From Endozoicomonas elysicola (GTDB taxonomy: Bacteria; Pseudomonadota; Gammaproteobacteria; Pseudomonadales; Endozoicomonadaceae), in NCBI RefSeq assembly GCF_000710775.1, contig NZ_JOJP01000001.1:4636232-4700231 (forward strand): a stretch of 64,000 nt of DNA. The letters run 5' to 3'. A model generated the notes under the pieces. That model was not told the origin of the DNA and searched no databases. It saw only the letters and a list, made by a program, of their open reading frames with translations. This document shows positions 9,606 through 64,000 of the stretch, one piece after another. Numbering within the stretch: the stretch's first letter is position 1; each line of letters starts with the position of its first letter. The position numbers and the translations under genes were made by a program.

Positions 9606-9638
9606 ATCCTGTTTCTTGAATGCAAACCTTGCTACCCA

Positions 9639-43142: not shown

Positions 43143-43535
43143 TTACCAGAAATCAACGGGCGTTCTTACCCCACGGCTATTCAGAGTCAAGTTACCATCA
43201 CCAGTCTGATCTCCCTGAGGTACAGCAGTTAGCAGCACACAACGGTTCAGGGGATCTGTCCCACACTGAGCAGCATTAATTGTGTAATTATTATTTTCAG
43301 AGGCTGGGTTCGCAGTAAAACCCAGCTGAGTCAAATCAGTGGTATAAGATAGCTGTTCTGTATAAAAACGCTCCTGCTGCTGCATCACCCACATAAGCAT
43401 TGCAATCCCGTCACTTCTGCGACTTTCAACCACATACTGACGATAGCTGGGGAAAACAATCGATACTAAAATACCAACGATTACAAGAGCAATCATCAGT
43501 TCGATCAGACTAAACCCTTTATTGATCATTTTCAT
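43143..43535 (-). CDS. pilE: Type IV pilus minor pilin PilE-like (module 1)
   Basis: A class III signal MKMINKG is cleaved before FSLIELMIALVIVGILVSIVFPSYRQY, with Glu5 present. The mature protein has about 124 residues and two late Cys (AQCGTDPLNRC) likely forming a disulphide loop. Start 43535 overlaps the pilY1 stop by four bases (ATGA) and has GGAG upstream, so it is translationally coupled. PilE minor pilins join the priming complex with FimU, PilV, PilW and PilX. Confidence 0.9.
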   Translation of the reverse strand: MKMINKGFSLIELMIALVIVGILVSIVFPSYRQYVVESRRSDGIAMLMWVMQQQERFYTEQLSYTTDLTQLGFTANPASENNNYTINAAQCGTDPLNRCVLLTAVPQGDQTGDGNLTLNSRGVRTPVDFW

Positions 43536-46500
43536 CGATTTTCTCTCCAGAACTGCCTGAACACAGGGATAGAGCCAAAGCTTCTTAATGTGTTCTGAAA
43601 ACATTCGGTGCCTACACAAAGCTCAGAACCCTGAGAGCCTCGAGTGACAATAGAAGGTTCCGGAGCCAAGGTAGAGTGCCTCAAAACAGTCCTTCGGTTT
43701 GATTTATCCAGTGGTGTAGTGCTGGTCATATCACCAAAATTGAACGAGGCACCTGCATTCTCAATATTCAGTGCATAGAGATAATTTATTCCGGGGTTTG
43801 GCGTACATTGATTGACGATATTGGTATTCTGACCAAATGAGTTAATCAACAAAACACCTCTAAATGTTGCCGCTTTGCTGATCACTTTTTCACCGGCAGA
43901 CTCTAGTCTGACATACCACCCCCGGCTACTGTCCAGACTACTTTGAGCAGCTTGGCGCTGAGTATCATTACCCTCCTGCAAAATATTGTTTGTTGCATCA
44001 TACAGATTGGACTCAGTAATTATGTTGCTTCCAACGTAGGTATAATCGGTAGGGGCCTGACTGATATGGGGGTCACGAAAGACATAAATCCGATCATCCG
44101 TATCGTCACTAAGAGGGTCCGACCGGTCTCCGGAACCAATAGCAATATTCAAGTAATCAAACGTGGTAGATACACTGACATCAGGTGCTTCAAAAAAACG
44201 TCTAACCCCCCTGCTGTCAGAGGAATTCGAAATTCTGGCTATGACCCCGCCATCTGCAAAGTTATTTGCACCTGTGTTTGTCTCACTAATATCAAAGCGG
44301 ATCAGTTGACCTCCGGTATCCACTGCATAAAAGAAATCAGTCAGACCATCCTGATCATGATCAACTAGGGTTAAGCTGGCCGGAATGCTATAACGAAGGT
44401 CAGAAATGTTCAGGCTGGAGCGGTTATTTGAGGAAGACCAGAGCAGTGCTCCTGTATCAGCATCAACCATGAAAACTGCGTTACCAATATTACTGTTCTG
44501 AACGGTCGCCTGACCATCAATGGCAACATCATAGCCGCCACCAAAAAGTAACACCTGACGTTCAGCACCATTCCATGGAACTCTCGCTAACTTTGGCTCA
44601 GACCACGTCTGTCCCAACCTGGCAAAATCACCGGTACTGTCAGTCATATGATCATTATCGACATCACCCCGTATTACCCATTTCAGAACAGGGCTATTTC
44701 TATTGGTCACATCGAGCGCATATATATTGTTTCCTCCACGACGCATCGTCATATATAAGAATGCGTGCTCACCTGGGTCAGCAGTGCCATTATTGGATTG
44801 AAGGATGTCTCCATCGCCATTAAGGTCATTAATCCACGAAGCCATGGGGCCATCCATACCGTATACTTTGGGGATCACACCTGCTGCAGGTGGTAGAAAG
44901 TACTGAACATCAATGCCGGCGATAGTAAAAATGCCTTCAGAAACCTCAATCTCATAATCATCCCACGATCCGCCCCCATCAGTGATTTGCAGCCTTTTAC
45001 CACCGTTGACTATTCGGATCTGAGGATTAGTAATAGTCCCCGTTGTTCCATGCCCGTTGTAAATGACCCTGTATCCCCCCGGGCGAACATTGCGGCGAGT
45101 TGTTTGATTCTTCGCTTCCGGGAAATCACCAATGCCTTCGAGTTCTATGCTATGCCAGATGGCTGATTCTTCATCAACAAAAAAGGTTTCTTCAACCCTC
45201 TCACCGGTATCCGCATTACTTCGGCCTCGATACATTGCTACATTTTGAACAAGCTCTTCAGGGACAAAAGAAAACTCAGTTGTACCATCATCTGCATTCA
45301 CTGCGTAAAGGAATCCATCATTAGCTGTGAAATAGATAGTCTTATCGGTTCCACCAAAATAATTAATAAGCTGTGGCTGAGTATGAAGCGGATCTCCAAT
45401 ACTGTGCCGGTCATCAGTGGTATCACCATCACCATCTTCATCATCGACATCGACACCTCTGCCCCATTGGATAACACTGTCCCGGTCTGTCGCGCTGATA
45501 AGATTCAGCATCGCAGCAGTAATAAGGCTGTTACTTTCGTGGAAACTGTTGCTGGAAGAGGTGAGAGAGACATTTGTATTACCGCTCATATTGATGTAGG
45601 CGGGTACAGTCTGGCTTCGCTGTTCTGCCATTCCACCCTGCTCGACCACCTGACCATCTGGCGAACTGCTCCAGAAGCTTCTTGCCGACTCACTGAAGAA
45701 ACCGGTAACGGGGTCAATGGCTACATTACCATCAGCATCATAAATCTGATTATCTTCACCCAGACGGTAGCGCTTAAGGTTGCCACGCCAATTAACACCT
45801 TCTTCAGGCTTAAACATGACAAAATAAACATCTTCCGCTGTTTCCAGTGCGCTGAATGCGCTGGTAGTCGTTACAGGGGCAGTAAACGTTGACTCCTGAG
45901 AGCGAACCCTGGCCATAATATCTCCCAGAGCCTCATCCAGCTGTGTTGCATCTGCAGCGTTATAATAGACTCCACCACCTGCATTGGCTGTTCTGGTCAA
46001 AATCCCCGGAGCAGCACCACCAAAACCGGCAATAGTATAAACCGTCGCATTCTGATCACCGGTTACAGACGGTTGTATATCTGCGTTTTGCATGAACCAG
46101 GCCATTTCATCCAAGCACTCATCCTCAGCACAATTGGAATCAATGCCCGATGGCAAAGTCATCCCACTGATCAGGCTTCTGACATCATTTTGATGATCAC
46201 CAAGTGCATAACCATCACCATCAGTGAACAAAATAACATTGATTCTCTGACACTGATTGCTTACCGGGGAATTAAATCGAAATCCAGTCAATGCAGCAGG
46301 AACACTATCATTGCCTCCCCACCTTGTGTTTAGCCCGGCAATATAACGATAAGACTCATAGAGGGCACCAACTAATGGAGTACAGCAGACATTGGCAGCG
46401 TAACCATTGGCAACATCAAGGGCTGCCTGTCGATTGTTATCAATATTCTGTGAAGGGAAGTCAACTCTAGCGCCATCACTAGTAAAACTCATCAGTGACA

Positions 46501-46810
46501 TATTGATATTCTGAGCACTTTGAATGAACCGACTCGCTGCTGCTTTCGTAATGTCCATGCGGGTCAGATCAATACCACCACCTGAGGTCACCAAGGCTCC
46601 CATACTGGTCGAGGTATCCATGATGAATATCACAACACCTCGCTGAGCATCTGGAATTTGACGCACAAAAAGATCCACATCTTCAGCAAATGCCTGAGTG
46701 GTTAAAAAAATAAGTAAAAAGACTTTCCTGGACCAATTGGCGAAAAAGGTATGTAAACCAATCTTCCGGCTGGCTATAACACTTTTTCTAACAATGCGAT
46801 GAATAGACAT
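43532..46810 (-). CDS. pilY1: PilY1-type tip adhesin / assembly factor with canonical VWA (module 1)
   Basis: About 1092 residues. A long signal peptide ends near FLTTQAFA. A von Willebrand A domain follows with an intact MIDAS motif (MDTSTSMG, about residues 64-71). The C-terminal half is a PilY1 beta-propeller of repeats (YFTANDGFLYAVNADDGTTEF, VLLFGGGYDVAIDGQ, DGLTDFFYAVDTGGQLIRFD) with Asp-rich calcium-type loops (DVDNDHMTD, DHDQDGLTD). In Pseudomonas, PilY1 caps the pilus, adheres, and signals through minor pilins to c-di-GMP. ATG 46810 is preferred over a TTG at 46819; GGGAGGG lies upstream. It is shorter than the two other PilY1 proteins here and less like them. Confidence 0.93.
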   Translation of the reverse strand: MSIHRIVRKSVIASRKIGLHTFFANWSRKVFLLIFLTTQAFAEDVDLFVRQIPDAQRGVVIFIMDTSTSMGALVTSGGGIDLTRMDITKAAASRFIQSAQNINMSLMSFTSDGARVDFPSQNIDNNRQAALDVANGYAANVCCTPLVGALYESYRYIAGLNTRWGGNDSVPAALTGFRFNSPVSNQCQRINVILFTDGDGYALGDHQNDVRSLISGMTLPSGIDSNCAEDECLDEMAWFMQNADIQPSVTGDQNATVYTIAGFGGAAPGILTRTANAGGGVYYNAADATQLDEALGDIMARVRSQESTFTAPVTTTSAFSALETAEDVYFVMFKPEEGVNWRGNLKRYRLGEDNQIYDADGNVAIDPVTGFFSESARSFWSSSPDGQVVEQGGMAEQRSQTVPAYINMSGNTNVSLTSSSNSFHESNSLITAAMLNLISATDRDSVIQWGRGVDVDDEDGDGDTTDDRHSIGDPLHTQPQLINYFGGTDKTIYFTANDGFLYAVNADDGTTEFSFVPEELVQNVAMYRGRSNADTGERVEETFFVDEESAIWHSIELEGIGDFPEAKNQTTRRNVRPGGYRVIYNGHGTTGTITNPQIRIVNGGKRLQITDGGGSWDDYEIEVSEGIFTIAGIDVQYFLPPAAGVIPKVYGMDGPMASWINDLNGDGDILQSNNGTADPGEHAFLYMTMRRGGNNIYALDVTNRNSPVLKWVIRGDVDNDHMTDSTGDFARLGQTWSEPKLARVPWNGAERQVLLFGGGYDVAIDGQATVQNSNIGNAVFMVDADTGALLWSSSNNRSSLNISDLRYSIPASLTLVDHDQDGLTDFFYAVDTGGQLIRFDISETNTGANNFADGGVIARISNSSDSRGVRRFFEAPDVSVSTTFDYLNIAIGSGDRSDPLSDDTDDRIYVFRDPHISQAPTDYTYVGSNIITESNLYDATNNILQEGNDTQRQAAQSSLDSSRGWYVRLESAGEKVISKAATFRGVLLINSFGQNTNIVNQCTPNPGINYLYALNIENAGASFNFGDMTSTTPLDKSNRRTVLRHSTLAPEPSIVTRGSQGSELCVGTECFQNTLRSFGSIPVFRQFWRENR

Positions 46811-46839
46811 ATTTACCAAAGCCCTCCCTGACTGGTCAT

Positions 46840-46885
46840 AATTCCTTTAAAAGTTCGGCCAGAATTCCTTTAAAAGTTCGGCCAG
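46840..46885. repeat. Perfect 23-bp tandem duplication at the end of a small gene
   Basis: AATTCCTTTAAAAGTTCGGC plus three bases occurs twice back to back (46840-46862 and 46863-46885). It covers the last codons and stop of the 46870-47190 gene, so the second copy is a non-coding remnant. The stop and last residues are unaffected, consistent with a recent slippage event. Confidence 0.9.
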
Positions 46886-47190
46886 ATGCGTAAAGCCTGA
46901 ACGGTATTAGGCTTCCAGGTTAATACTGCTGGTTTTCCATCTAACGCTCTAAGCTTCTGGGTAAAGCTCCTTTCATCATGAGGTAAAACAATCAGTTTCT
47001 CATTAAAGACAAAGCTTTTGGGTGGACAGCTGTGGCAAGCATAAGCATCAATAATACCCGAAGTATCTGTTGCAAATTTGATATCTACCCTCACCAGTTC
47101 CTTGATATCTTCAACTTTTTGAAACCCCACTGACATCAATGGAGTAATTAAAAAAGCACAAAACAGAAATCCTTTTAATAATATTCTCAT
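46870..47190 (-). CDS. Small secreted Cys-containing protein of the module-1 pilus operon
   Basis: A 106-residue product with a signal peptide (LLKGFLFCAFLITPLMSVGF) and a CHSCPP motif in the middle (YACHSCPPKSFVF). Around it is a mixed alpha/beta segment. I do not recognise a family; the CxxC pair in the periplasm could bind metal or form a disulphide. It sits between pilX and pilY1 of module 1 (ten bases after the pilX stop) and has no counterpart in modules 2 and 3. Confidence 0.7.
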   Translation of the reverse strand: MRILLKGFLFCAFLITPLMSVGFQKVEDIKELVRVDIKFATDTSGIIDAYACHSCPPKSFVFNEKLIVLPHDERSFTQKLRALDGKPAVLTWKPNTVQALRIWPNF

Positions 47191-47200
47191 TTTATATTCC

Positions 47201-47650
47201 CTATCTCGCCGCTACATAAATCACACCCAGTGTTTGATCGGATCGTGCACCAGTGCCATCAAGAGTAGCGACACTGTTTATTTCGAAAGACAAGCCAATA
47301 AAATTTGTGAAACTAAAGCCTGCTGGTGGTGGAACCTGCCCGATAAACCGAAGGGTAACGTTCTGCTGGATCCCCCCTCCGGGATTAACAATCGCCGTCA
47401 GGGTCTGCTCCCCAGCCAAAGCAGTATTAAAAAGCCCAGGGTTTGTTTCCAGAAAGTTGAGTTGCACTTCTAATTCGCTATAAGCGACTTGGTATACCTG
47501 CACCGTGCGCTGCTCATTGCTCACGGTGACCTCTTCCAACTTTGCCATCTCCATCACAAAAAGGCCGGAAAAAATCATAACGATCATGACGATCATCACA
47601 ATTAATAAAAAAGATCCAGCCTGCTCTTTTCTTCCTGAATTGATTCCCAT
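47201..47650 (-). CDS. pilX: PilX-like minor pilin (module 1)
   Basis: A 149-residue pseudopilin-like protein. The leader ends in AG before SFLLIVMIVMIVMIFSGLFV, followed by MEMAKLEEVTVSNEQRTVQVYQVAYSELE, the PilX N-terminal pattern. As in other PilX proteins residue 5 is not Glu (Ile here). The hydrophobic core contains a threefold VMI repeat encoded by a short DNA repeat. It is smaller than PilX of modules 2 and 3. It follows pilW directly (two bases between stop and start). Confidence 0.8.
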   Translation of the reverse strand: MGINSGRKEQAGSFLLIVMIVMIVMIFSGLFVMEMAKLEEVTVSNEQRTVQVYQVAYSELEVQLNFLETNPGLFNTALAGEQTLTAIVNPGGGIQQNVTLRFIGQVPPPAGFSFTNFIGLSFEINSVATLDGTGARSDQTLGVIYVAAR

Positions 47651-47652
47651 TA

Positions 47653-48447
47653 TTACAGCCCTGTATTATTTAATCGGATAGCGGTGCTATACATATACCT
47701 GGGTGTTTGATCATTGAATGTCAGATCACCACTATTAAGCAGGTTATAGGTTCGAGCTCTTGAATCAAAAACACGTGAAAGCTCTCCAGCACCAACTAAA
47801 ACCCCCACACGAATTCCTACGACCTCCCGCCAGTCCGCCACAGCAGCGGCCGTAACGTATTGATTAATATTGGTGGTACCCGGTATTGCAACTCCATAAA
47901 CTGCCTGAAACCTTTCAACGCCCTGAACTAAAGCCAGTGCATTGCCTGGTGGCCAAGGCAGGCCGGTTACTGGGTCATAACCAAGGCAAAACAACGTATT
48001 TATATTGTTTGCATCAGGAGCAACAAAATAGACATCAGCTGTTAAAGCACCACCAGTGACCGTTCCTCCTGCGCAATCACGCCCATTCCCAGTAATTGGA
48101 TCTGTTAGTGGTTCGTACTGAATAGCCACCCTGTCACTGTTAGTACCTCCACCATCAACAGTACAGATTGTATCTCCCTCACATGCCCCTCTGTAAAAAG
48201 GTGGTGGAGGCGCTGTCCCAGCTTGAGCCCTAAACCCAGCACGTCGAAACTCACTACTCATAATATAAAGACTGTGGCGACCGTTCTCCTGAGCGGTAGC
48301 GATAAACTCATTCACGCTCGCTGACCGGCTATTACTGATCATCAACTGCAAAGCACTACCCGCAATGATAAGCCCCATAACAAAGGCCAACATCATTTCA
48401 ATAATGCTAAATCCTTTTTGATGATTGATTACCTCAGTCCTTTTCAT
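47653..48447 (-). CDS. pilW: PilW-like minor pilin (module 1)
   Basis: Prepilin with leader MKRTEVINHQKG before FSIIEMMLAFVMGLIIAGSALQL, Glu5 present. The family segment ENGRHSLYIMSSEFRRAGFRA follows; PilW proteins typically have R-x-A-G-[FY]. The 264-residue product has several Cys and a C-terminal VGIRVGVLVGAGELSR region characteristic of PilW. It sits between pilV and pilX with near-zero gaps. Confidence 0.88.
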   Translation of the reverse strand: MKRTEVINHQKGFSIIEMMLAFVMGLIIAGSALQLMISNSRSASVNEFIATAQENGRHSLYIMSSEFRRAGFRAQAGTAPPPPFYRGACEGDTICTVDGGGTNSDRVAIQYEPLTDPITGNGRDCAGGTVTGGALTADVYFVAPDANNINTLFCLGYDPVTGLPWPPGNALALVQGVERFQAVYGVAIPGTTNINQYVTAAAVADWREVVGIRVGVLVGAGELSRVFDSRARTYNLLNSGDLTFNDQTPRYMYSTAIRLNNTGL

Positions 48448-48450
48448 GTT

Positions 48451-49023
48451 TTAATTCCGGTTATAGGTAAACCCAACCTGCTGACGAACCGCTAGAACGC
48501 CTTGTTCTGCTCCTCTCGAGTCCCAGGCAATGGTGATAGTGACAACAGCGCCTGTGGCACAGGGAGCAGGACAGTTAATCACGATAGTCGGGTTAATGAT
48601 GTCATTTGCATTTCTACACATAAGATCATGAACATCAAAAGCAGCCATCTGATCAGGAGTACATGCAGTGCCAATACACTGAGTCGGAATCACTGGACAA
48701 TACGCAGCAATATTTGCACTGGCCGTTGTTGCAGCCATTTGATAGGCAGAGCTCTCAAGCCCTGCCGGGTTTAACTTCATTAACTCAGCAGTAGCATTTG
48801 CAAGCCACACGGCCTGTGATCGCTGAAGACTGTCATGAGTGACTCGTATGGCCTGGCTTTGCATACCTGCAACCGCCATCACACCCCCGACAAAAATCAA
48901 CACACCAATCATGACCTCAATAAGCCCTATACCCTTTTGCCGACTTAATGCAAAAGGCTGCATTGGTTTATTTGAAATCGAAACAAAGAACGAGGAAGAA
49001 CATGTGCCTTTCAGTTTATTCAT
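48451..49023 (-). CDS. pilV: PilV-like minor pilin (module 1)
   Basis: Type IV prepilin of 190 residues with cleavage site QKG before IGLIEVMIGVLIFVGGVMAVAGMQ. Start 49023 overlaps the fimT stop by four bases and has GGAGGGG ten bases upstream, so I chose it. It gives an unusually long 31-residue leader with an extra hydrophobic patch (SSSFFVSI). A start at 48963 (MQPFALSRQKG) would give a normal leader but lacks a ribosome binding site. Six or more Cys follow. Confidence 0.88.
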   Translation of the reverse strand: MNKLKGTCSSSFFVSISNKPMQPFALSRQKGIGLIEVMIGVLIFVGGVMAVAGMQSQAIRVTHDSLQRSQAVWLANATAELMKLNPAGLESSAYQMAATTASANIAAYCPVIPTQCIGTACTPDQMAAFDVHDLMCRNANDIINPTIVINCPAPCATGAVVTITIAWDSRGAEQGVLAVRQQVGFTYNRN

Positions 49024-49562
49024 GGACAGTTTACCCCCTCCTGCTTCCGGATTAACCCTGATCCTGAAACATTTACCTGTCTCTGAGCCAATGGTCTGGC
49101 CGGTACCGGACATAAAGTAAATGTGCCCTGACCCACCGGGCTTCCCCTGGGAATAAAGGTAAGCAGCTGACCATTGTTCCATCCAATGTTGACAGGGCTA
49201 CTGACCTGGTTGTACACACGTAAAATTTCTTCACCAGCATCAATAACATTATTTCTATTTGGGTTTACAAAAATGACCCACCCATCAGCCCAATTCGCAC
49301 CAGCATCACAGGCCGTTCCTGCAGTGGAACGACACACACTGACATTTTCAGATCGTTTGATTGCCTCACTTCTCGCCAGAGCAGCGCTTGAGTAAATACG
49401 CTGATTCAAGTAATCGAGCTTAAAACCTTCTGCAACCAGCCCCAGTGGAGTTACCATGGAGACCATAATTCCCATCAACACAACGGTGATCATCAGCTCA
49501 ATCAAAGTGAAACCGCTGTTGAACTTATGCTTTACAGCTGGGTGGAAAAAAACCAACTTCAC
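49020..49562 (-). CDS. fimT: FimT/GspH-like pseudopilin (module 1)
   Basis: Leader HKFNSG before FTLIELMITVVLMGIMVSMVTPLGL, then RSEAIKRSENVSVCRS and the GspH-family core NWADGWVIFVNPNRNNVIDAGEEILRV. The product is 180 residues starting at GTG with GGAAGGAC upstream; a TTG at 49556 is an alternative. FimU/FimT-type minor pilins begin the priming complex. It is the first gene of module 1, after an AT-rich gap. Confidence 0.88.
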   Translation of the reverse strand: MKLVFFHPAVKHKFNSGFTLIELMITVVLMGIMVSMVTPLGLVAEGFKLDYLNQRIYSSAALARSEAIKRSENVSVCRSTAGTACDAGANWADGWVIFVNPNRNNVIDAGEEILRVYNQVSSPVNIGWNNGQLLTFIPRGSPVGQGTFTLCPVPARPLAQRQVNVSGSGLIRKQEGVNCP

Positions 49563-49866
49563 GTCCTTCCCTATGAAGAATCCCTCTCCTTAAATCTAGG
49601 TGGGTAAGTTATACAGACGATCAGAAGTCGATAAACGGTAGAAAAAAACCGATAAAAGAAATAGTCATATACATAATCAATTGTTTTTAAATTCATTCAT
49701 CACTAATGATGGAAGCATTACTTATCTATTCACTTACTACAAAAGAACAATTGACATTTATATATAAGGTTTAAAAAACAACAGCATCTTTTATTGAAAA
49801 GTAGATAATTTAATTTAAAAAAATCATCCCAATATAATTTTCAAAACACTTCATTAATTCATTTAA
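49563..49866 (-). promoter_or_regulatory. AT-rich gap between pilus modules 1 and 2
   Basis: 304 bases, strongly AT-rich, with no gene on either strand. It separates the pilE of module 2 from the fimT of module 1, both read leftward, so it must contain the promoter (and possibly terminator) that makes module 1 an independent transcription unit. No single promoter match was clear enough to assign by eye. Confidence 0.4.
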
Positions 49867-50277
49867 TCACCAGCAGTCACCAGTAGCGCCACCTCCGGAA
49901 TTACTACTACCTCTTACCCCAAGGTTATTCAGTGTGAATGTTCTACAGTTTGTATCCAGAAACTGTGTGCTACCGGATGCTGCCGTGGCAGTTAGAGTAA
50001 ATGTACTATCAGTTGCTGTCAGTGTTATTACATAATGACCTTCCGGCGAGTTACTCCCTCCCAAATCAGCAATGTTATTACTGTAGCTGTTGTCATAAAT
50101 ATAAATTCGCTCCTGCTCTGCTGCAGCGGAAGTTAATGCAACGTAAGCATCAGAGCGCCTGCTTTCCTGAATATATGTCCTGTATGAAGGAACAGCAATC
50201 GCTGCCAAAATAGCAATAATAGCAACTACGATCATCAGCTCAATTAAACTGAACCCATTTCTTACTCTATTAATCAT
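49867..50277 (-). CDS. pilE: Type IV pilus minor pilin PilE-like (module 2)
   Basis: Prepilin MINRVRNG before FSLIELMIVVAIIAILAAIAVPSYRTYI, Glu5 present. The mature chain has about 128 residues with the pattern SAAAEQERIYIYDNSYSNNIADLGGSNSPEGHYVITL, and two Cys near the C-terminus. The body is very similar to the module-3 PilE. It starts five bases after the pilY1 stop; the ribosome binding site GGTGA overlaps that stop. Longer in-frame starts run back into pilY1 and are not needed. Confidence 0.9.
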   Translation of the reverse strand: MINRVRNGFSLIELMIVVAIIAILAAIAVPSYRTYIQESRRSDAYVALTSAAAEQERIYIYDNSYSNNIADLGGSNSPEGHYVITLTATDSTFTLTATAASGSTQFLDTNCRTFTLNNLGVRGSSNSGGGATGDCW

Positions 50278-50281
50278 GTAA

Positions 50282-55659: not shown

Positions 55660-55665
55660 CCACCT

Positions 55666-56691
55666 TTAATTCCGGACATCAATCGTCATTACATATTCTC
55701 TTCTCAGCAGCCTGTCTGTTGGTGTCACCGTTGTACCATCAAAAAAATATGCTCTGGGAGTAGGAGCTAACTGACCTGTACTTTGGGTAAGTAAATGAAT
55801 TCTGATTGCTGTTACCTGTTGCCAATCTGCGTTTCGAAACGCTCTATCACCGGCATTTACAAAACGATTAGCAACACCATTTCCATTTGAATCCAGGCCA
55901 TAGTAAATAACCATATTCTCAATACCCCCAACAACAGGAAGAGCATTAGTATCACCCAGTGTTTTTCTGTATAAGGTATTAACACCGTTCGCAGGATCTG
56001 GCTTGATAAAATAAACAACTGAATCGACAAGCCTCATTGAGCCTGGGTTAAATGATACTGTTCCTGCTGAAACAGAACCGTCATAACAGTTAAAATTTCC
56101 TCTTAAAGCTACCGAGCAATTGCTAAATCGTGCAGTTCCTCCCGTTGTATAAGCAAGACTATTGGTAGAAGCCGCTGCAGCAAAAACCAAAGAAATTTGC
56201 TGACAATCCTGTCGGATTAGACCGACAGGAAAGTTGGCTGCAGCAGGGAAGCCACCTGTATCAAAAGTTACTATTCCAGAAGCGACATCATGATTGGAAA
56301 CATTCCATACCAAGTCAGTAGAAAGTTTAAATATAATAATTCCCTCAGATGTCGCATCAGGATCAACCATATTAACTACGTCTGCCTGACTGATTCCTTG
56401 TATTTTTTCTTCCGTTATCATCCATAAATCGAGAGGATTGGTATTCACAACAACATTCGACACAGGAAACTCATCGCTACAACCTGTGTACCCAGCTGTG
56501 CGAATATCATTTGAAATTGAATACAGCCCTATTCTTCCAGACTGCTGCATTAACCCAAATTGGTAGTTTAATTGATCCGTCAGATTCGATGCTGCAAAAA
56601 GCCGGATTGCAGCAGTAATGATGAAAAGGCTTATCATCATAGAAACAACCAACTCAATCAGAGTCAGCCCAAGCTCAAACCTCTTATTCAT
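55666..56691 (-). CDS. pilW: PilW-like minor pilin (module 2)
   Basis: Prepilin MNKRFELG before LTLIELVVSMMISLFIITAAIRLFAAS, Glu5 present. The PilW segment QQSGRIGLYSISNDIRTAGYTGC follows. At 341 residues it is longer than the module-1 homologue. The C-terminus has AIRIHLLTQSTGQLAPTPRAYFFDG, similar to Pseudomonas PilW. It overlaps pilV by four bases at its start (ATGA). Confidence 0.9.
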   Translation of the reverse strand: MNKRFELGLTLIELVVSMMISLFIITAAIRLFAASNLTDQLNYQFGLMQQSGRIGLYSISNDIRTAGYTGCSDEFPVSNVVVNTNPLDLWMITEEKIQGISQADVVNMVDPDATSEGIIIFKLSTDLVWNVSNHDVASGIVTFDTGGFPAAANFPVGLIRQDCQQISLVFAAAASTNSLAYTTGGTARFSNCSVALRGNFNCYDGSVSAGTVSFNPGSMRLVDSVVYFIKPDPANGVNTLYRKTLGDTNALPVVGGIENMVIYYGLDSNGNGVANRFVNAGDRAFRNADWQQVTAIRIHLLTQSTGQLAPTPRAYFFDGTTVTPTDRLLRREYVMTIDVRN

Positions 56692-57176
56692 ACTCCTCCC
56701 CGGATAACTATATTTCTTCTGGGAAGAGCGCCTTTGCTATCATCAAAAAAAATCGTAATGGTATAGACACGACCTTCCGGTGTATCCGCCATCACAATAG
56801 AACCGTCCCCATTGGGTAGCTGCTCATTTATGATGAATTTCCATTGATTGATATCATAGGTAGCTAATTGTGCAGGTGTGCAGTCAGCAACAACACAATT
56901 ATCAGGATAAACAGTAGGGATACTGCCAAGACCAACACTATAGCCCGGACCATCTATTGAAAAAACCGGGTTCGATCGGATGCGATCAAGCATGTCATAA
57001 CCGATAGTGTTTGCAGCATTATTAAAATAAGCGATCTGACTGTATGATAAGCTTCGTGTCTGTACAACTGAAATCCCAAGCATTCCGGATGCCAGAATTA
57101 AAACTGATATCAATACTTCAACCAGTGTAAAACCACTAGACGCTTTCTGAGTATGTTCAAAATGAATCATGGGCAT
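56688..57176 (-). CDS. pilV: PilV-like minor pilin (module 2)
   Basis: Prepilin leader ending KASSG before FTLVEVLISVLILASGMLGISVVQTRSLSYSQ, Glu5 present. The family segment DMLDRIRSNPVF and C-terminal VYTITIFFDDSKG complete the PilV pattern. It has 162 residues. The start lies inside the end of fimT (ten-base overlap). Confidence 0.9.
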   Translation of the reverse strand: MPMIHFEHTQKASSGFTLVEVLISVLILASGMLGISVVQTRSLSYSQIAYFNNAANTIGYDMLDRIRSNPVFSIDGPGYSVGLGSIPTVYPDNCVVADCTPAQLATYDINQWKFIINEQLPNGDGSIVMADTPEGRVYTITIFFDDSKGALPRRNIVIRGGV

Positions 57177-57694
57177 GTCACCGTATTATTTTCGACGACC
57201 CTGCCAGTCAAATTTACAGTAACGCCCCTGATAACGGAGAGGTCACCATTCAAATCACAAATTCTCAGATCTCCCTGACTGCCAGTAATCACATTTCCTT
57301 CCCCCTGAAATGTAATATTTCTCGTTCCTCCCCAGGCAACAGTTGCCACACTTGGTATGACTGAAGCTCTAATCAACTGATCAACGCCGGCATCCAAAGC
57401 GCCATTGCCATCTATATCCAGAAAAATGATCCAACCATTATTCCATGAGGCTGGTGTTGCCAAACATGTGGCACTGTCATTTGAAGGGCATACTGTCACA
57501 CCACTGCCCTGTTTCATCGCCTCAGCTCTGGCAAAAAAAAGGCTTGATATCAGGTTTCTCTGAACTGATTCAAGATTTGCCCTAGTCGAAATCTGGCCAA
57601 TCCTCGGAGCCGCTATGGATAAAATAAGCGAGGAAATCAGCACAACAATAATAAGCTCAATCATGGAAAACCCTCTCAGGCTGAATAGCTTCAT
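57167..57694 (-). CDS. fimT: FimT/GspH-like pseudopilin (module 2)
   Basis: Prepilin MKLFSLRG before FSMIELIIVVLISSLILSIAAPRIG, Glu5 present. The core ARAEAMKQGSGVTVCPSND and WNNGWIIFLDIDGNGALDAGVDQLIRA is GspH-type. It has 175 residues. AGGAGATGGGG precedes the ATG. First gene of module 2. Confidence 0.9.
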   Translation of the reverse strand: MKLFSLRGFSMIELIIVVLISSLILSIAAPRIGQISTRANLESVQRNLISSLFFARAEAMKQGSGVTVCPSNDSATCLATPASWNNGWIIFLDIDGNGALDAGVDQLIRASVIPSVATVAWGGTRNITFQGEGNVITGSQGDLRICDLNGDLSVIRGVTVNLTGRVVENNTVTCP

Positions 57695-57904
57695 ACCCCA
57701 TCTCCTGAGAATTTCTGCTAATCCTTTTGTAGCGGCAAAAAAAGAGAAGCAAATAGATCTAAATCAGGGAGGACATGACAATCTGTCAAATTAAAAATGA
57801 TTTAAAAAATCAGTGGCTGTTATGAAAGGATACAAAAGGATTTTTGACAGATAATCAGGACTTATTTCTGCTATTATTTAATTCTCGTTTTCCAATAAGA
57901 GTTA
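57695..57904 (-). promoter_or_regulatory. Gap between pilus modules 2 and 3 with TTTGACAGAT repeats
   Basis: The 210 bases should contain the module-2 promoter. TGACAATCTGTCA (57776-57788) is a perfect palindrome. The word TTTGACAGAT appears once on each strand, around 57780-57790 and 57844-57853, as an inverted pair. A TTGACA within the minus-strand copy could be a -35, but no good -10 was found at 16-18 bases. Confidence 0.35.
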
Positions 57905-58312
57905 TTACTTCCAGCACTCTTGGGGAGCCTGTATTCCAAAATGATCCAGAGTTATCTCTGTGCAGCCTGAATCCGTTGCCTGAACATCTGTGTTTAAGGC
58001 AGTAGCCGTCAGGGTAAATGAGGCGCTGTCAGCTTCAACACTGATCGTATAATACCCTTCGGGAGAGCTATTCCCCCCCAGACTGTTAACTGCATTTGTA
58101 TACGCATGGTTGATGGAATACCAGCGCTCCTGAGCCGCAGCAGCAGCCGTCAATGCCGACCAGGCATCACTTCGCCGGACTTCATACATATATTGGCTAT
58201 AGGAGGGATACACAATACCCGCCAGAATGCCAATAATGGCAACGACAATGATCAGCTCAGGCAGGGAAAAACCCTGTTCACGATTCTTAGTCACGGGCAC
58301 ATTTCCATTCAT
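57905..58312 (-). CDS. pilE: Type IV pilus minor pilin PilE-like (module 3)
   Basis: Prepilin MNGNVPVTKNREQG before FSLPELIIVVAIIGILAGIVYPSYSQYM. Glu5 is present, but residue 4 is Pro instead of Ile. The body (TAAAAAQERWYSINHAYTNAV, GGNSSPEGYYTISV, SFTLTATA) closely parallels module 2. It starts one base after the pilY1 stop (TGATATG). About 121 mature residues, two late Cys. Confidence 0.9.
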   Translation of the reverse strand: MNGNVPVTKNREQGFSLPELIIVVAIIGILAGIVYPSYSQYMYEVRRSDAWSALTAAAAAQERWYSINHAYTNAVNSLGGNSSPEGYYTISVEADSASFTLTATALNTDVQATDSGCTEITLDHFGIQAPQECWK

Positions 58313-58313
58313 A

Positions 58314-61300
58314 TCAATCAATCCATGGAATCCTGAAAATCTGCCACCAGCTCTGTCGTCCTTCAGAACTGAAACTGTATTCAAGATTAGTCGAAGTAAT
58401 GCTCCCTCCCGCGCCCTGAGTCACTGCGGTCAGTTTTCCTTGCTCCCCCTGGTGCACCACTGGTGAAGAGGCATAGCCAACCCCCAGACTCACCTTATCA
58501 AGAGAGCGCTCAATTTCCAGACTATCGACTTGCACACTGCCAAGCACGGCATCGGGAGATGCAGTGCCTGTCAAATAGTGAAGGGCATACAGAGAGCTTG
58601 TGCCATCAATGGAGCAGCTGTCAGATGGTGGGCTGTACTCGGTCAACAGAATTTGAGAGAACAATCGGGCAGCTTTATTCACACTGCGTCCCGAAGGGGC
58701 AGATCCGTCATAGCTTAAAGGAAGCTTCCATCCACCCTGTCCAGCAACCACGTCCTGTAGCATTCCAAAACTATTAATGGTTTGAGAACCCACTACAAAT
58801 GGGATATAGGAAGAACCGGACTTCTTCAGGACATCGCCATTAGTAAAAACAGCCACATCACCCACGTTAACCAGGTTGCTCTGGCTCACAGATGCGTATG
58901 TAAATTCTTTTGTACTGTTCAATGGCTCCTGAATACCATAAAAATAGTTGGCCGCAGTATCACGATTATCACCAGCAGTTAGCAGGCGCCCTGTACCGGA
59001 ATAAACCCAGAAACTGTTTTCATCGGTGACCGTCATGGGTGGAGCCATAATGGGTTGACCAGCATCCATAAAAACATTCAAGCTGGAACTGCCCAACGTA
59101 GATGCCAGCTTCAGTCGCATTAATTTCCCTGTCAGACTGGTTCCCCCGGTTTCCACAGTGCCAAAGTAAACAGCATCATCTTTGTAATCCCTGTCCCAGT
59201 CCTCAGCCACCATATCTCCGGCATAAGCAGCGGAATAAGATGTCATCAGAGGGTCAAAGCCGGAAACAAAAGACTTGTTGTTCAGGTCATAAACAAAGAC
59301 TCGGAGATTCTGGTCTGACGTTCCCTGCTCAAGAGCAGACCGCAGTGCTGTGGAGCTGCTGCCCGCTGGCCCGGAGCCAAACACCAGATACCATTCGTTT
59401 TGTGCTGGATTGCTCCAGTCCGTTTCTCCATTAGCACTAACACCTGCCTCACGCCTTTTAACCAGTGCAGGGCGCGAGGTTGTAAACCCCAGGTCCGCAT
59501 GGGAAATTTCAGCCAGTAATTCAGGTGGCTGCTCTGGGTCAGTGACATCCAATACCACCCAGGCAGAACGCATGGTGCGACTTTCACTGCCAATGGTTAC
59601 ATCAATATCACCACCTCCAAGCCGCATCCCCACTACCAGAACCGTACCCCAGCCATCTGGATGATCACTGTCATCCGGAAAGATATTCGCATCAAAGACC
59701 ATGGGTTCTGAATCCATGTAATAAACATGAGGGTAATCTTCTTCGGTCAACCAGCGCATGTGAGGCAGCAGATTCATAGGCGCGTAGCTCCATAACTCTG
59801 AGCCCAGAGGGTGCTGTACTTCATTATTATCCGATGTCAGCTCATAGCTGTATGAACTTTCATCCCAGAAGCCACCGTTAAATGCATGAATCAGACCATC
59901 ATTGGCCCCTACATAAAGAATATGTCTTCGATTGAGGTATTGATTACGAAATGTACGATAACTGCTGTCATTGTAATAAGAGTCAAAACGGCTATCAGGT
60001 GTAGCAACCAGTCTGGGGGTCGAATGCACGATATCACCAAGACGCCAGACATCATCCATACCATCCTCATCAAAATCGATGGTGCGGGAACGCGTTCCGG
60101 ATAGCTCCTCTCCGCGAACATAATTAACGACCGTAGACACATCACTGGAAGAAATCCCCAAGTATCCCTCATGACCGGCAAAGGTTGAGGATATAAAGGG
60201 TTGCTGCTCACCCGTATCAACCTGCTGATTATTATTGGAATCAAGCCAGGTCAATATATGCCGGCCACCAGAGGCAAGAGCATTGTAGGTTCTCTGGTTT
60301 GTTAGATCGCTCAATAAGGCCAGCTGCTCTCTGGCATCCCAGATGGTTTCCAAAGATGAGAGTGATTTCAATGAACCATCTGCCACTTTGGTAACACCAA
60401 AGTCATTGGAGGTATAACGCTGGACCATTGTCTGGCCGGCATTAGGATCAAAAAATAGCTCAACAATCTTATCGGTGTTGTAGTCATCGAGCTGGGCGTT
60501 ACCATTACCATCTTCTCGAATATATCCTTTGCTATCGATGAATAGTGAATGAAGAATCCCCCCCCATGTTACCGATTTACCGTTAACATCGAGGTTTGGC
60601 TGAAACAACGCCTGATAAATAGCACCGGTTCCTGTGGAGCTATTGGCAAATAGAGCAGCATTCGTCGCGGAAGAGACTCGACTGGAAATGTCTTCCAGAA
60701 CCTGCCCCAACTGACTGGAAAGCAGGGCTGGATTCCTTGAAAAAAAGTAGTTATCTGGCAGGCCATCTGAACCAAGGGCTCCGGTCACGTTATTTCTATT
60801 ATCCCACTCGCGGTTATCGCCTGCATCAATACTGCCATCACCATCGGCATCATGATTTGGGCTGCCATCACCATCCAGATCTATGAACCCACCGTATTTG
60901 GCAGCCAGAAAAAGTGGTTTGGGCAACACACCCGCGGCAGACCCGGAAGCAGTAAAGTCGGTGACCTGAAACGCTGTTGTTCCTTTATAGGCATAACTAC
61001 TTTGTAACCCATCATTGCCTGAACTCCCGGTCACCGTGTATGAGAAACGCATATTCAGGCCAGCAAACACACCGTCCACTTGCACAGCTACTCTGACTTC
61101 ATTAGCGTTAAAACCCGTTGTATTCAGAGTACTGTCTGCGGTTTGGTTGCATTGGTCTCCGACACAGAACTTGACTCTTGAAGAAGCATCGTAGTCATAG
61201 TCATTGCCCCAGAGAGAATCTTCCCAGGTAAAAAGCAGAGATCCCTGAACCACTTGCCCAGATCCATCGAGTATTAGCTCTTCAACGACAACATCGGTTA

Positions 61301-63110
61301 ACGTACAGTCACTGCCACTGCCGGAAAAATCACCTCCGCCACTGCCAAAGTTTGAACTGGTCTGACAAACAGGCTGAAAAGTGAATGTCTTTCCATCCAC
61401 ATTCAGGGTAAAACTGGGCATAGTTTCGGCCAGCTCAATGGCGTAAGTTTTAACTTTCTGGATGCCATCAAGGTCTGTTCGTAAGTCTGTAGTGTTACCA
61501 TGAAAAGCCAACCCTGATACTTGATAGCCGCCTTCCAGCTGAGGAATCTCCGGACATAAACCGACGGCATCAGAAAGACCCGATAAATACTTAGCAGTAC
61601 ATTGGCGCGTACTACCAGTACCACCCACCAGATATTGGCCGGCAAAACTACCACCGTACTCATGATCTCCAACCTCGTCGGTTTTGCTATTTACGGAGCT
61701 GGTGCCAGACATACCCGGAAGGTCTGAGCTACTGGATAGCTGGTCGGTATCAAATGAGTTCAACCCAGTGGATAAAACAATAATTGAGCAATTGGCACAG
61801 GCATTATCTGCAAACATTGGGTTCGCCCAGCTCTCTCTGGACAGGTCACTGACAAAGGAGCTGTCATTGCTGGTGTCAAAACTGCTGGTGGCTGTCGTTT
61901 CTCCCGCAAAGTAACGCAGTGCTTCGAGATAAAGTTCCGCCAGTGGGTTCCCCCACATACTGCAGTGACGGGAAGAGTATGTACTTCGGCTGGATTTAAA
62001 CGTTGATACAGAGATGCCATAGCTATTGCAGTCCGTATATTTGTTTTGAGAAAAACTGTACTTCGCCAGCCTGAACTGATTAATGTTATGAATAATCCCT
62101 TCTACATTGGTGAATCGTCCAGAAGAAAGCTCAATCTCATCATCGGAGCTCTGAGTATTGCCACCAATCTTGTTGATATTTCTTCGCAGTACACCACCAG
62201 AAATATTTTTGTCATAAGAACCACTGATTAAACCGAAGCGGATATCCCCAGACTCACCGTACTGCTGGAGCAGGCCTATGGGCTTACTCTTTCCATTACT
62301 GTAAAGCTTACAGCGATCGGTATTTACAGAATCCTTATCAGTTACACAGGCTTCAATATAAACATCATTTGTCGTCAGCCTGTAACTGGTGGATGGGCTG
62401 TTTTGAGCTCCCCACTGGCACTGCTTTACTTCTGTTGAAGCCCATCGAGGCCAGGCTTCTCTGGCAACCCTGACTTCAGGAGTTCCATTTTCAGAGTCGG
62501 CAACACTGCAAAGGCTGATCTCACTGTTGGTATAGGGCGTAAAATTTTCGGTGGGCACACCCGAATCACTGCTTCTATAGATCTTCACAAACGCATGTAC
62601 GTCTCTGGGAATATAAGCACGCTCCAAAATCGTTTGATTATTGGTATCTGTCGATCGCTTACCACCAAAGAGCACCGTTCTCAGGATGTCCATCCGTGTC
62701 ATGGTCGCCCAGTTCAGGAAGTTACCACTCCAGGGTGCCTGGGATGTGGTGCAGTAATGCTGGTTATCTCCAGAGGCTTCGGCTACCGGAGAATAGCGTC
62801 CAGAAGAGTACTGGTAGCACCAGTTACTGTCGAAATAACCCAGATAATCAAAGCTGTCCACATAGCTGGTATCCAGTCTGCCATCCGAATCCAGGTCAGT
62901 GTAATCACTGTACGCTTTTTTAAATAACTCATGGTCGACAGACATGACCAGCATGACCAGCGGTTCCGAGGTATTACTGATCAAGGGAGGTGTTACTGCA
63001 TAATCACTCGATACAGCTTCAGCATTGACCCGTAATGAAAACAGCAACAGCAGAAGCCCGGACAACACAATCTGCCTGAGAGTAAGCCTTTGTGAGGTAT
63101 ATCGATCCAT
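58314..63110 (-). CDS. pilY1: PilY1-type large tip protein (module 3)
   Basis: A 1598-residue secreted protein with a signal peptide (LSGLLLLLFSLRVNA). The opening LVMLVMSVDHELFKKAYSDYTDLDSDGRLD parallels module 2 and again lacks a DxSxS MIDAS. Calcium-type Asp loops (DLDGDGSPNHDADGDG, DWDRDYKDD) recur. The C-terminal propeller (YVGANDGLIHAFNGGFWDE, NEWYLVFGSGPAG) is PilY1-like. ATG 63110 is directly preceded by GGAGGTGATC, a ten-base full complement of the 16S rRNA 3' end, and is preferred over ATG 63122. It is 45 bases after pilX. Confidence 0.92.
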   Translation of the reverse strand: MDRYTSQRLTLRQIVLSGLLLLLFSLRVNAEAVSSDYAVTPPLISNTSEPLVMLVMSVDHELFKKAYSDYTDLDSDGRLDTSYVDSFDYLGYFDSNWCYQYSSGRYSPVAEASGDNQHYCTTSQAPWSGNFLNWATMTRMDILRTVLFGGKRSTDTNNQTILERAYIPRDVHAFVKIYRSSDSGVPTENFTPYTNSEISLCSVADSENGTPEVRVAREAWPRWASTEVKQCQWGAQNSPSTSYRLTTNDVYIEACVTDKDSVNTDRCKLYSNGKSKPIGLLQQYGESGDIRFGLISGSYDKNISGGVLRRNINKIGGNTQSSDDEIELSSGRFTNVEGIIHNINQFRLAKYSFSQNKYTDCNSYGISVSTFKSSRSTYSSRHCSMWGNPLAELYLEALRYFAGETTATSSFDTSNDSSFVSDLSRESWANPMFADNACANCSIIVLSTGLNSFDTDQLSSSSDLPGMSGTSSVNSKTDEVGDHEYGGSFAGQYLVGGTGSTRQCTAKYLSGLSDAVGLCPEIPQLEGGYQVSGLAFHGNTTDLRTDLDGIQKVKTYAIELAETMPSFTLNVDGKTFTFQPVCQTSSNFGSGGGDFSGSGSDCTLTDVVVEELILDGSGQVVQGSLLFTWEDSLWGNDYDYDASSRVKFCVGDQCNQTADSTLNTTGFNANEVRVAVQVDGVFAGLNMRFSYTVTGSSGNDGLQSSYAYKGTTAFQVTDFTASGSAAGVLPKPLFLAAKYGGFIDLDGDGSPNHDADGDGSIDAGDNREWDNRNNVTGALGSDGLPDNYFFSRNPALLSSQLGQVLEDISSRVSSATNAALFANSSTGTGAIYQALFQPNLDVNGKSVTWGGILHSLFIDSKGYIREDGNGNAQLDDYNTDKIVELFFDPNAGQTMVQRYTSNDFGVTKVADGSLKSLSSLETIWDAREQLALLSDLTNQRTYNALASGGRHILTWLDSNNNQQVDTGEQQPFISSTFAGHEGYLGISSSDVSTVVNYVRGEELSGTRSRTIDFDEDGMDDVWRLGDIVHSTPRLVATPDSRFDSYYNDSSYRTFRNQYLNRRHILYVGANDGLIHAFNGGFWDESSYSYELTSDNNEVQHPLGSELWSYAPMNLLPHMRWLTEEDYPHVYYMDSEPMVFDANIFPDDSDHPDGWGTVLVVGMRLGGGDIDVTIGSESRTMRSAWVVLDVTDPEQPPELLAEISHADLGFTTSRPALVKRREAGVSANGETDWSNPAQNEWYLVFGSGPAGSSSTALRSALEQGTSDQNLRVFVYDLNNKSFVSGFDPLMTSYSAAYAGDMVAEDWDRDYKDDAVYFGTVETGGTSLTGKLMRLKLASTLGSSSLNVFMDAGQPIMAPPMTVTDENSFWVYSGTGRLLTAGDNRDTAANYFYGIQEPLNSTKEFTYASVSQSNLVNVGDVAVFTNGDVLKKSGSSYIPFVVGSQTINSFGMLQDVVAGQGGWKLPLSYDGSAPSGRSVNKAARLFSQILLTEYSPPSDSCSIDGTSSLYALHYLTGTASPDAVLGSVQVDSLEIERSLDKVSLGVGYASSPVVHQGEQGKLTAVTQGAGGSITSTNLEYSFSSEGRQSWWQIFRIPWID

Positions 63111-63155
63111 GATCACCTCCATTTCCCTGTTAACTTCTTACGACCAACTCGAAAA

Positions 63156-63782
63156 TCAGCTGCTTTTCTTATACGACGATTGCAACATTACCCGTGAATC
63201 ATTTGAGCCACCGGTCGCCAATGCAGTAATCCGATAGAACTGAGCCCAGTCTCCACGGTTGGCCGGATCAGGCAAAGGCCCTGGCGCTTCTTTGGCGATA
63301 TAGCAGCGAAATTCAATAATGTATTTTGCCTGAGCCGATATACCGCTGATTGAAATCGTAGTAACTCTGTGTTGATTACTATCACTCCAGACAGTGCCAG
63401 TTTGCCAAGGCTCGGAAACTCCGGGATCACAGCTACCTATATCGTCAATATCGGATCCTGAAAAACAGTACCCATTATCGCAATCTACATTAAAGCCAGA
63501 TAAGGTAAGTGCATTATTGGCAATGAAGTTTTCAGCCTCTTTTAATGCTGCCTCAGCCGCATATAGTGCCATCTGTTGATCCTGGTAATTACCACTCATT
63601 TTTTCTTCGAGGGTTGCCATTTTCACCGCTGTTAACCCTGCAACCGTGATGACCAGCAGCATGACCAGGCTAACCAGTAACACACTCCCTCTTTCTAATG
63701 GCCAGGGAGTCAATAAACGGCTTTGCTGAAGAACCTCAGGATACTGTTCTGGCATTGATGCGTTTATGTGCCCTCCCATCAC
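63156..63782 (-). CDS. pilX: PilX-like minor pilin (module 3)
   Basis: A long leader ends PWPLERG before SVLLVSLVMLLVITVAGLTAVKMATLEEKMSGN, followed by QQMALYAAEAALKEAENFI, the clearest PilX signature of the three. Glu5 is absent as usual. The C-terminal QFYRITALATGG and RVMLQSSY match module 2. Length is 208 residues from a GTG overlapping the pilW stop; an ATG at 63779 is an equal alternative. Confidence 0.9.
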   Translation of the reverse strand: MMGGHINASMPEQYPEVLQQSRLLTPWPLERGSVLLVSLVMLLVITVAGLTAVKMATLEEKMSGNYQDQQMALYAAEAALKEAENFIANNALTLSGFNVDCDNGYCFSGSDIDDIGSCDPGVSEPWQTGTVWSDSNQHRVTTISISGISAQAKYIIEFRCYIAKEAPGPLPDPANRGDWAQFYRITALATGGSNDSRVMLQSSYKKSS

Positions 63783-64000
63783 AGCCCCCGGTTCCTTAAC
63801 TTAATGGTTTTCATGAAACTGCGTCGAACATACAGATCGTTTGGCAATATTCTCTGGCCCGCAAAGAAATAGGCCTGGGCTTCTGGCGCAACTTCAGTGA
63901 AGCTCCGAACCAGTAATTCAAGCTTGATTGTGATTATGTTCAGCCACTCATCGCTGTAGGGTGTTATTTCACCGGCAGTCATATACCGGTTTGCAATACC
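63779..64000 (-). CDS. pilW: PilW-like minor pilin, C-terminal part (module 3, partial)
   Basis: The frame is open to the window edge; about 73 codons are visible. It opens with GIANRYMTAGEITPYSDEW and has IITIKLELLVRSFTEVAPEAQAYFFAGQRI. This corresponds to the PilW C-terminal region after the conserved V-x-A-I-x-I-x-L-L segment seen in module 2 (AIRIHLLTQSTGQ). Position immediately upstream of pilX, with overlapping stop and start, supports the assignment. The N-terminus with its prepilin leader lies beyond the window. Confidence 0.78.
   Translation of the reverse strand, partial: GIANRYMTAGEITPYSDEWLNIITIKLELLVRSFTEVAPEAQAYFFAGQRILPNDLYVRRSFMKTIKLRNRGL

What the first reader, a model, noticed from the sequence alone, without database searches (positions are those of the whole stretch)
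43143..64000. Three consecutive PilY1/minor-pilin modules in tandem
Seen: the order fimT-pilV-pilW-pilX-pilY1-pilE occurs fully twice and a third time truncated by the window end, all on one strand, with ATGA/GTGA overlaps inside each module and gaps between modules. Known: most type IV pilus genomes carry one such cluster, and PilY1 plus minor pilins form the initiating tip complex. Inference: the strain may build pili with alternative tips, choosing adhesins by condition or host surface, or one tip may mix subunits. About 20 kb devoted to tip complexes is unusual.
Basis: partly seen in the sequence, partly recalled or inferred. Interest (0 to 1): 0.82.

Follow-up and report, generated by a model that had tools for sequence, protein, structure and literature searches.

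The report
Array of interchangeable pilus-tip gene modules
This marine bacterium (an Endozoicomonas) carries five complete gene sets for the sticky tip of a retractable surface hair, four of them side by side, and in some related strains the contact-making part of a tip has been replaced by recombination while the rest stayed the same.

Summary
Beyond the window module 3 is completed, a fourth module follows on the opposite strand, and a fifth lies 1.5 Mb away. The genome is an Endozoicomonas. All 30 genes of the five sets (fimT-pilV-pilW-pilX-pilY1-pilE) are open; the genome has one PilO gene, and fimX, pilD and pilC lie near the array. Such arrays are normal in the closest genera: in 22 of 22 genomes M3 has another module or remnant beside it; 7 of 22 keep three or more with PilY1. 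The modules form five old classes inherited as units (355 of 357 genes agree). Siblings lose modules: of the window's four, only M3 is intact in the E. cretensis contigs seen. In three cases close relatives share minor pilins and PilY1 base but have heads diverged to saturation, always within a class. M2/M3 heads look like von Willebrand domains without the metal-site motif; most M1/M4/M5 heads keep it. Best reading: alternative, separately inherited tips for one pilus machine, with diversifying heads. Multiple tip modules are known (Myxococcus, Xylella); the four-module array and class-bound head replacement are the new variant. Expression, binding and assembly were not tested.

The parts
43143..43619 (-). 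M1 pilE (minor pilin)
   Evidence: Pfam N_methyl + ComP_DUS; class M1
43532..46819 (-). M1 pilY1, 1095 aa, von Willebrand head with metal-site motif DTSTS, beta-propeller base
46870..47190 (-). M1 orf106: small CxxC protein with a signal-peptide-like start (by eye); conserved upstream of headed M1-class pilY1
   Evidence: 14 of 16 headed, 0 of 4 headless M1 PilY1; no Pfam/NCBIfam hit
47201..47650 (-). M1 pilX
   Evidence: PilX_N only at E 0.027, below cut-off
47653..48447 (-). M1 pilW
48451..49182 (-). M1 pilV (true start probably later in this ORF)
   Evidence: TIGR02523
49020..49562 (-). M1 fimT
   Evidence: GspH
49630..49639 (-). AlgR-like box ACCGTTTATC in a conserved block upstream of M1 fimT (putative)
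49867..50409 (-). M2 pilE
50282..55111 (-). M2 pilY1, 1609 aa, head without MIDAS motif
55105..55659 (-). M2 pilX
55666..56691 (-). M2 pilW
56688..57176 (-). M2 pilV
57167..57694 (-). M2 fimT; homology of the E. cretensis contig to this module ends inside it at 57303
57905..58384 (-). M3 pilE
58314..63122 (-). M3 pilY1, 1602 aa; head (residues 36-860) modelled, von Willebrand-like fold, no MIDAS motif
63156..63782 (-). M3 pilX
63779..64000 (-). M3 pilW, 3' part; the gene continues to L005 9060, then pilV 9057-9689, fimT 9680-10306 (-). M4 follows at L005 10681-18487 (+), M5 at L006 5057-11493 (+)
40981..43077 (-). fimX, 65 bp downstream of M1 pilE, same strand
   Evidence: PDB FimX 4j40 E 4e-74; PAS-GGDEF-EAL
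37670..39165 (+). pilD (prepilin peptidase) and coaE
28347..29567 (+). pilC (pilus platform protein)
   Evidence: PDB PilC 3jc8 E 3e-104; (best NCBIfam model below its cut-off)

Best explanation
The array is a set of alternative tip cartridges for one type IVa pilus machine. Each six-gene module encodes minor pilins that prime assembly and carry their own PilY1, whose beta-propeller base docks on PilX and whose N-terminal head contacts the surface (from work on Myxococcus and Pseudomonas; inferred here). Shown here: five complete modules; one PilO gene; five old classes inherited as units; two head types (with and without the metal-site motif); loss of modules in siblings; and, in three cases in relatives, a PilY1 head exchanged by recombination while base and minor pilins stayed. 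Inferred: different tips are used on different surfaces or hosts; each class assembles with its own partners; head replacement changes what is bound; expression is chosen by promoters (an AlgR-like box at M1, M4, M5 but not at M2, M3); and FimX couples extension to cyclic-di-GMP.
Against: No expression, binding or assembly data. M1 and M2 of this genome have no close relative for a selection test. In the E. cretensis contigs most of the homologous array is gone, so the modules are dispensable in some niche. Head replacement was seen in relatives, not in the window's own modules. The AlgR-box signal is weak: 11 of 36 upstream regions with two or fewer mismatches; one of 300 shuffled motifs did as well; the regions are not phylogenetically independent. 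A second PilB-like ATPase (C1:943742) was not assigned, so a second pilus system is not excluded. Foldseek gave no match at E <= 0.001 for the M3 head; the von Willebrand match rests on VIA-align and on recalled domain contents of the matched entries; one of the ten best rows (a Toxoplasma conoid-ring chain) I cannot classify.
Confidence: 0.7

Rival explanations
1. Mixed tips: minor pilins and PilY1 of different modules co-assemble, so the array gives combinatorial rather than alternative tips.
For: All modules share the same gene set, and one PilO-type machine would host them all. M2 and M3 are related (48% PilY1 identity). G007, G009 and G015 have an M1 minor-pilin set without PilY1 beside it and an M1-class PilY1 at another place.
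Against: No exchange of parts between classes: 355 of 357 genes concordant; 61 of 61 heads class-bound. The split M1 sets and PilY1 are of one class.
Confidence: 0.12
2. Redundant copies on the way out: duplication left spare modules and only M3 (with M5) matters.
For: In E. cretensis contigs M3 is intact; M4 lacks about 5.5 kb, M2 is reduced to part of fimT, and M1 homology ends inside pilE. G010 has a fragmented M4; pilY1 is split into two reading frames in G010, G018, G021 and G015c (sequencing error not excluded). M3 is present in 22 of 22 genomes of the two genera.
Against: All 30 genes are open here. The classes are old and kept in distant relatives, with dN/dS under 0.25 for most gene pairs (nine pairs above it, highest 0.71). 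M4 and M2 are complete in G026 and G027. E. cretensis also carries a divergent, complete M1-class module on a short contig.
Confidence: 0.12
3. Division of labour other than adhesion: some modules serve DNA uptake or surface sensing rather than distinct adhesion targets.
For: Xylella fimT and pilY1 paralogues have differing, often opposite effects on movement and transformation (PMC9956873, passages). M1 PilE matches ComP_DUS.
Against: The part most exchanged is the PilY1 head, as expected for surface binding; DNA-receptor residues were not examined.
Confidence: 0.06

Closest known systems
Three minor pilin/PilY1 clusters of Myxococcus xanthus (PMC7541494 passages; PMC13190605 abstract and sections 2.1-2.3; PMC9109919 abstract)
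   Same: Several complete minor pilin + PilY1 clusters for one pilus machine; shared C-terminal propeller, different N-terminal heads; alternative tips proposed and differential expression shown there.
   Different: Three clusters with widely spaced locus numbers, against four in one array plus one here; four minor pilins per cluster are listed there, without PilE; two of its heads carry DUF4114, which Pfam did not find in the five PilY1 here; class-bound head replacement is not described ('recombin', 'swap', 'shuffl', 'exchang' occur 0 times in PMC13190605).
Xylella fastidiosa pilY1-1/-2/-3 and paired minor-pilin operons (PMC9956873 and PMC12700405, passages)
   Same: Three PilY1, paralogous minor-pilin sets, functional divergence shown by mutants.
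   Different: Mostly two operon regions, no array of four; pilY1-1 and pilY1-3 are described as nearly identical, unlike the old classes here.
fimU-pilVWXY1Y2E operon of Pseudomonas aeruginosa with FimS-AlgR (PMC5979040, PMC4064291, passages)
   Same: Gene content and order; AlgR activates the operon; algZR and hemCD lie together (PMC5790918, start of abstract in listing).
   Different: Described there as one operon; the AlgR link here is only predicted.
Kil (Tad) pilus with four kilLMN tip complexes in Myxococcus (PMC12075869, passages)
   Same: One pilus type with several paralogous tip complexes.
   Different: Tad-type pilus, other proteins, predation.
PitA, Streptococcus oralis pilus (PDB 7w6b)
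   Different: From a Gram-positive pilus (recalled); 13% identity; fold only.

Membership tests
Minor pilin/PilY1 tip module of type IVa pili | PilY1 with C-terminal beta-propeller | tested here: met
   PF05567 over cut-off for M1, M2, M3 in the genome scan and for M5 as a protein; M4 by profile and PDB 3hx6 at 6.9e-8. The M2 protein alone had no Pfam hit.
Minor pilin/PilY1 tip module of type IVa pili | Minor pilins FimU/FimT, PilV, PilW, PilX (plus PilE) beside pilY1 in one operon-like order | tested here: met
   M1 PilX only weakly by Pfam (E 0.027); libraries were run on M1 and on M2 PilX and PilW, the rest by own profiles
Minor pilin/PilY1 tip module of type IVa pili | Located at the pilus tip and needed to prime assembly | not testable with these tools
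   needs mutants or proteomics
Alternative tips for one machine (Myxococcus type) | Several modules but one set of core pilus machinery | tested here: inconclusive
   One PilO, one pilB near pilA genes; a second PilB-like ATPase at C1:943742 not assigned
Alternative tips for one machine (Myxococcus type) | Modules differentially expressed and individually sufficient | not testable with these tools
   no expression data
von Willebrand A (vWA) head with MIDAS, for M1/M4/M5 | DxSxS motif | tested here: met
   M1 13 of 14, M4 8 of 9, M5 9 of 10 PilY1 of 950 aa or more (one M5 match, G017_4, is in an odd context; the M4 miss is a fragment); all three of this genome have it
von Willebrand A head with MIDAS, for M2/M3 | DxSxS motif | tested here: not met
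   0 of 28 M2/M3 PilY1; the fold itself matches by structure for M3
FimX | PAS-GGDEF-EAL protein closest to FimX | tested here: met
   c-di-GMP binding not tested
AlgR regulon | AlgR binding site upstream and AlgR present | tested here: inconclusive
   one LytTR regulator beside a kinase-like and a hemC-like gene, named by eye; weak box enrichment; the PDB search named no AlgR among the 60 rows shown of 212

The most novel reading that the evidence does not exclude
The locus works as a tip library with two levels of variation: five class-locked six-gene cartridges for one retractable pilus, and, within a cartridge, adhesin heads exchanged between strains by recombination at a conserved base, so that animal-associated Endozoicomonas re-aim their pili without rebuilding them; MIDAS-type and MIDAS-less tips are run by separate regulatory circuits (AlgR and another).
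Probability: 0.3. Interest if true: 0.75.

Novelty: new variant of a known kind. Interest (0 to 1): 0.52.

Why it matters
Endozoicomonas are widespread partners of corals and other marine animals (recalled), and how they recognise hosts is open; one paper only suggests that PilY1 may act in host recognition (PMC11809670, passages). A set of old, coherent tip modules with exchangeable heads gives concrete candidate recognition proteins and predicts which part should track the host. It is also a natural experiment on which parts of a pilus tip are interchangeable: heads can change on a fixed base, but so far only within a class, and minor pilins are not traded between classes.

Tried and rejected
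Phase variation: six runs of seven or eight equal bases occur in the array and none in M5; no longer tract typical of slipped-strand switching; not pursued. Promoters by sigma-70 consensus in 49400-58000: 17 found against 18.9 expected; terminator-like sites 12 against 7.0 (sd 2.9), weak. Recent tandem duplication as origin: rejected, M2 and M3 PilY1 are 48% identical and both classes exist in distant relatives. Short PilY1 of 808-818 aa in four relatives (G018, G025, G026, G027) first looked like loose cassettes; they belong to complete M1 modules that lack the head. Head traffic between classes: looked for, none in 61 heads. Head replacement in the window's own M2: rejected; its head and base stand equally far from G026/G027 (63/64 and 63/65%), while G008b is the odd one (head 45%, base 70%). 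Foldseek on the M3 head: no match at E <= 0.001. G010 M3 pairs also show a lower head identity, but only 134-159 head residues of a split gene are compared; left inconclusive. The copy-number survey (83 of 145 genomes with a match) was set aside for counts because at most four candidates per genome were scored; one search replaces it. The first AlgR scan (29 of 66 upstream regions with a hit on either strand, background 6.5%) used a pattern chosen after seeing the M1 and M5 alignments and is circular; one search uses the published core.

Rows dropped before counts: ORFs under 90 aa throughout; modules with fewer than three genes in the count; heads of PilY1 under 900 aa, and PilY1 under 950 aa; pairs with PilW identity under 80%; upstream regions cut short by a contig end; two of 34 named loci with a stop in frame and two very long ones left out of the model alignment. 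The tree set (up to 50 modules) predates the loci.
Full report
1. What is there. The window is C1:4636232-4700231 of a 5.57 Mb chromosome. Reading on beyond its end shows that the three modules on the minus strand (M1 43143-49562, M2 49867-57694, M3 57905-66074 in extended window numbering) are followed head to head by a fourth on the plus strand (M4, L005 10681-18487). A fifth, M5, lies at C1:3202056-3208492. A profile of the five PilY1 proteins finds these five in the genome and no other at E <= 0.001. All 30 module genes are open. M1 contains one more gene, orf106.

2. Where it sits. Downstream of M1 on the same strand come fimX, then nadE; further left on the other strand are pilD-coaE and, 15 kb from the array, pilC. 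PilO has one match in the genome. One pilB lies near two pilA-type genes; a second PilB-like ATPase at C1:943742 was not assigned. So the tips probably share one machine, but this was not fully settled.

3. Who it is. The species of the window genome was not determined.

4. How common it is. In the family, 34 of 37 genomes have PilY1 at E <= 1e-40, with one to six match rows each (some genes give two rows). In the two Endozoicomonas-like genera (22 genomes including this one, all examined) M3 or part of it is present in 22 of 22, with another module or remnant beside it in 22 of 22. Seven of 22 (G000, G018, G023, G024, G025, G026, G027) have three or more modules with PilY1 at the locus; G018's M2 pilY1 is split into two frames, and G010, with a fragmented M4, is not counted. 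Outside the family, in a sample of 35 genomes of the order in which all candidates were scored, 25 have a match at E <= 1e-20, 10 have two or more PilY1 genes and two have more than five (G051 seven, G064 six; hand count, pieces of one reading frame merged). Of 68 named loci outside Endozoicomonas, 10 show two PilY1 modules within reach and 10 have nadE near the module (contigs often short). I infer that M3 is the old resident of this locus and that the array grew around it.

5. Modules are inherited as units. Outside G000, 63 modules with three or more genes were compared gene by gene with M1-M5: in 61 all genes point to one class, 355 of 357 genes in total. The exceptions, in G023 and G024, are a lone M2 pilE beside an M1 module. 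Trees of the six families recover 28 of 30 class groups as monophyletic; M3 fails for PilX and PilY1. M2 and M3 group together in all six, with support of only 0.17 for FimT. All five classes occur in both genera, so they predate the split of the two and have not traded parts in this sample. G008 and G017 carry two M5-class modules each; the M5-class module of G016 has no flank in common with L006.

6. Gain and loss. Against E. cretensis (94-96% DNA identity in shared parts, assembly in 630 contigs) M3 is intact; M4 lacks about 5.5 kb; M2 is reduced to part of fimT at a rearrangement joining window 57303 to 26314; and the M1 homology ends inside pilE at 43374. E. cretensis has a divergent complete M1-class module on a 6.7-kb contig of unknown place, a further M1-class pilY1 and an M5-class module. 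G007, G009 and G015 hold an M1 minor-pilin set without pilY1 beside it and an M1-class pilY1 at another place; for G014 the contig ends too soon to tell. G010 has M4 fragments and an inverted M1-class pilY1. dN/dS is under 0.25 for most gene pairs; nine are above, the highest 0.71 (M5 PilV, G007/G015).

7. Heads. Of 63 close pairs of modules printed, seven show a PilY1 head at least 15 percentage points less identical than its base, apart from six pairs with the split G010 gene. They trace to M5 of G007, M2 of G025 and M4 of G008 or G017. Among the 34 M3 pairs without G010 none does. Third-position identity falls to 32-46% (M5), 34-52% (M4, apart from 64% in the first 100 codons) and 33-47% (M2, likewise 64% at the start) in the heads. 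Beyond them it is 81-97% (M5), 93-97% over codons 1202-1400 and then 51% and 80% (M4), and 65-79% (M2). Minor pilins stay at 86-96%, 84-96% and 71-79%. Three control pairs are flat. Such a drop at synonymous sites points to imported sequence, not to fast protein change alone. All 61 heads have their best match from another genome in their own class; G024's M1 head is nearest to a strain of the other genus (G013, 64%) while its base is nearest to G023 (85%).

9. orf106. A small protein with a conserved CxxC is found 11-264 nt upstream of 14 of 16 headed M1-class pilY1 genes, including those away from their minor pilins, and of 0 of 4 headless ones (the G023 gene and its 960-aa length from L170; the misses are G017 and the first of two in G021). 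By analogy with TfcP of Myxococcus (PMC13190605, section 2.2) it may help fold or stabilise the head; this is inference.

10. Regulation. The genome has one LytTR regulator, 245 aa, beside a kinase-like and a hemC-like gene (names by eye), as for algZR. ACCGTTTATC lies upstream of M1 and M5, ACCGATAGTC upstream of M4. With the published core (PMC4064291 passages), 11 of 36 upstream regions of M1/M4/M5 have two or fewer mismatches (1 of 300 shuffled motifs did as well; shuffled mean 2.3) against 3 of 29 for M2/M3 (87 of 300; mean 1.9). This is a lead, not a result.

11. What is known. Multiple minor pilin/PilY1 clusters with proposed alternative tips are established in Myxococcus and paralogous sets in Xylella. 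A search for Endozoicomonas with PilY1 found one paper, which says that type IV pili were never discussed for these bacteria in earlier publications and suggests that PilY1 may act in host recognition. Searches for PilY1 with recombination, mosaic or gene-transfer terms (15 of 513 listed; 10 of 12; 10 of 14) listed no paper that I recognised as describing class-bound head replacement; I saw listings, passages of PMC12700405 and PMC12075869 and a term search of PMC13190605. The library lacks most subscription journals.

12. Verdict. A real and richer feature than reported, of a known kind, with a new layout and a new evolutionary rule. The decisive work is expression and binding.

Noticed in passing
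window 26314 and 57303: Junction of a rearrangement relative to E. cretensis, consistent with an inversion of about 31 kb between these points (which would carry pilC, pilD, nadE, fimX, M1 and M2); only one junction was seen.
   Followed up: partly
G051 contig C28:77792-86773: Three pilY1-like genes in a row within 9 kb, seemingly too close for full minor-pilin sets between them; seven PilY1 match rows in that genome.
   Followed up: no
L085 (G021:C2) 596054-603015 of the contig: An M1-class module with two pilY1 genes (981 and 971 aa) and pilX between them.
   Followed up: no
L158 (contig length as G009:C44): Record titled Salinisphaera sp. G21_0 carries an Endozoicomonas-type array 87% identical to M3 PilY1; probably misnamed.
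   Followed up: no
L132: Record titled MAG Klebsiella pneumoniae carries an M3-like module and nadE as in marine gammaproteobacteria; probably a mislabelled bin.
   Followed up: no
G000 C1:5347737 and C1:3925660: Two type II secretion-type ATPases, each near its own set of pilin-like genes.
   Followed up: no
L005 18780-19511: A 243-aa membrane-like protein follows M4; family not searched.
   Followed up: no
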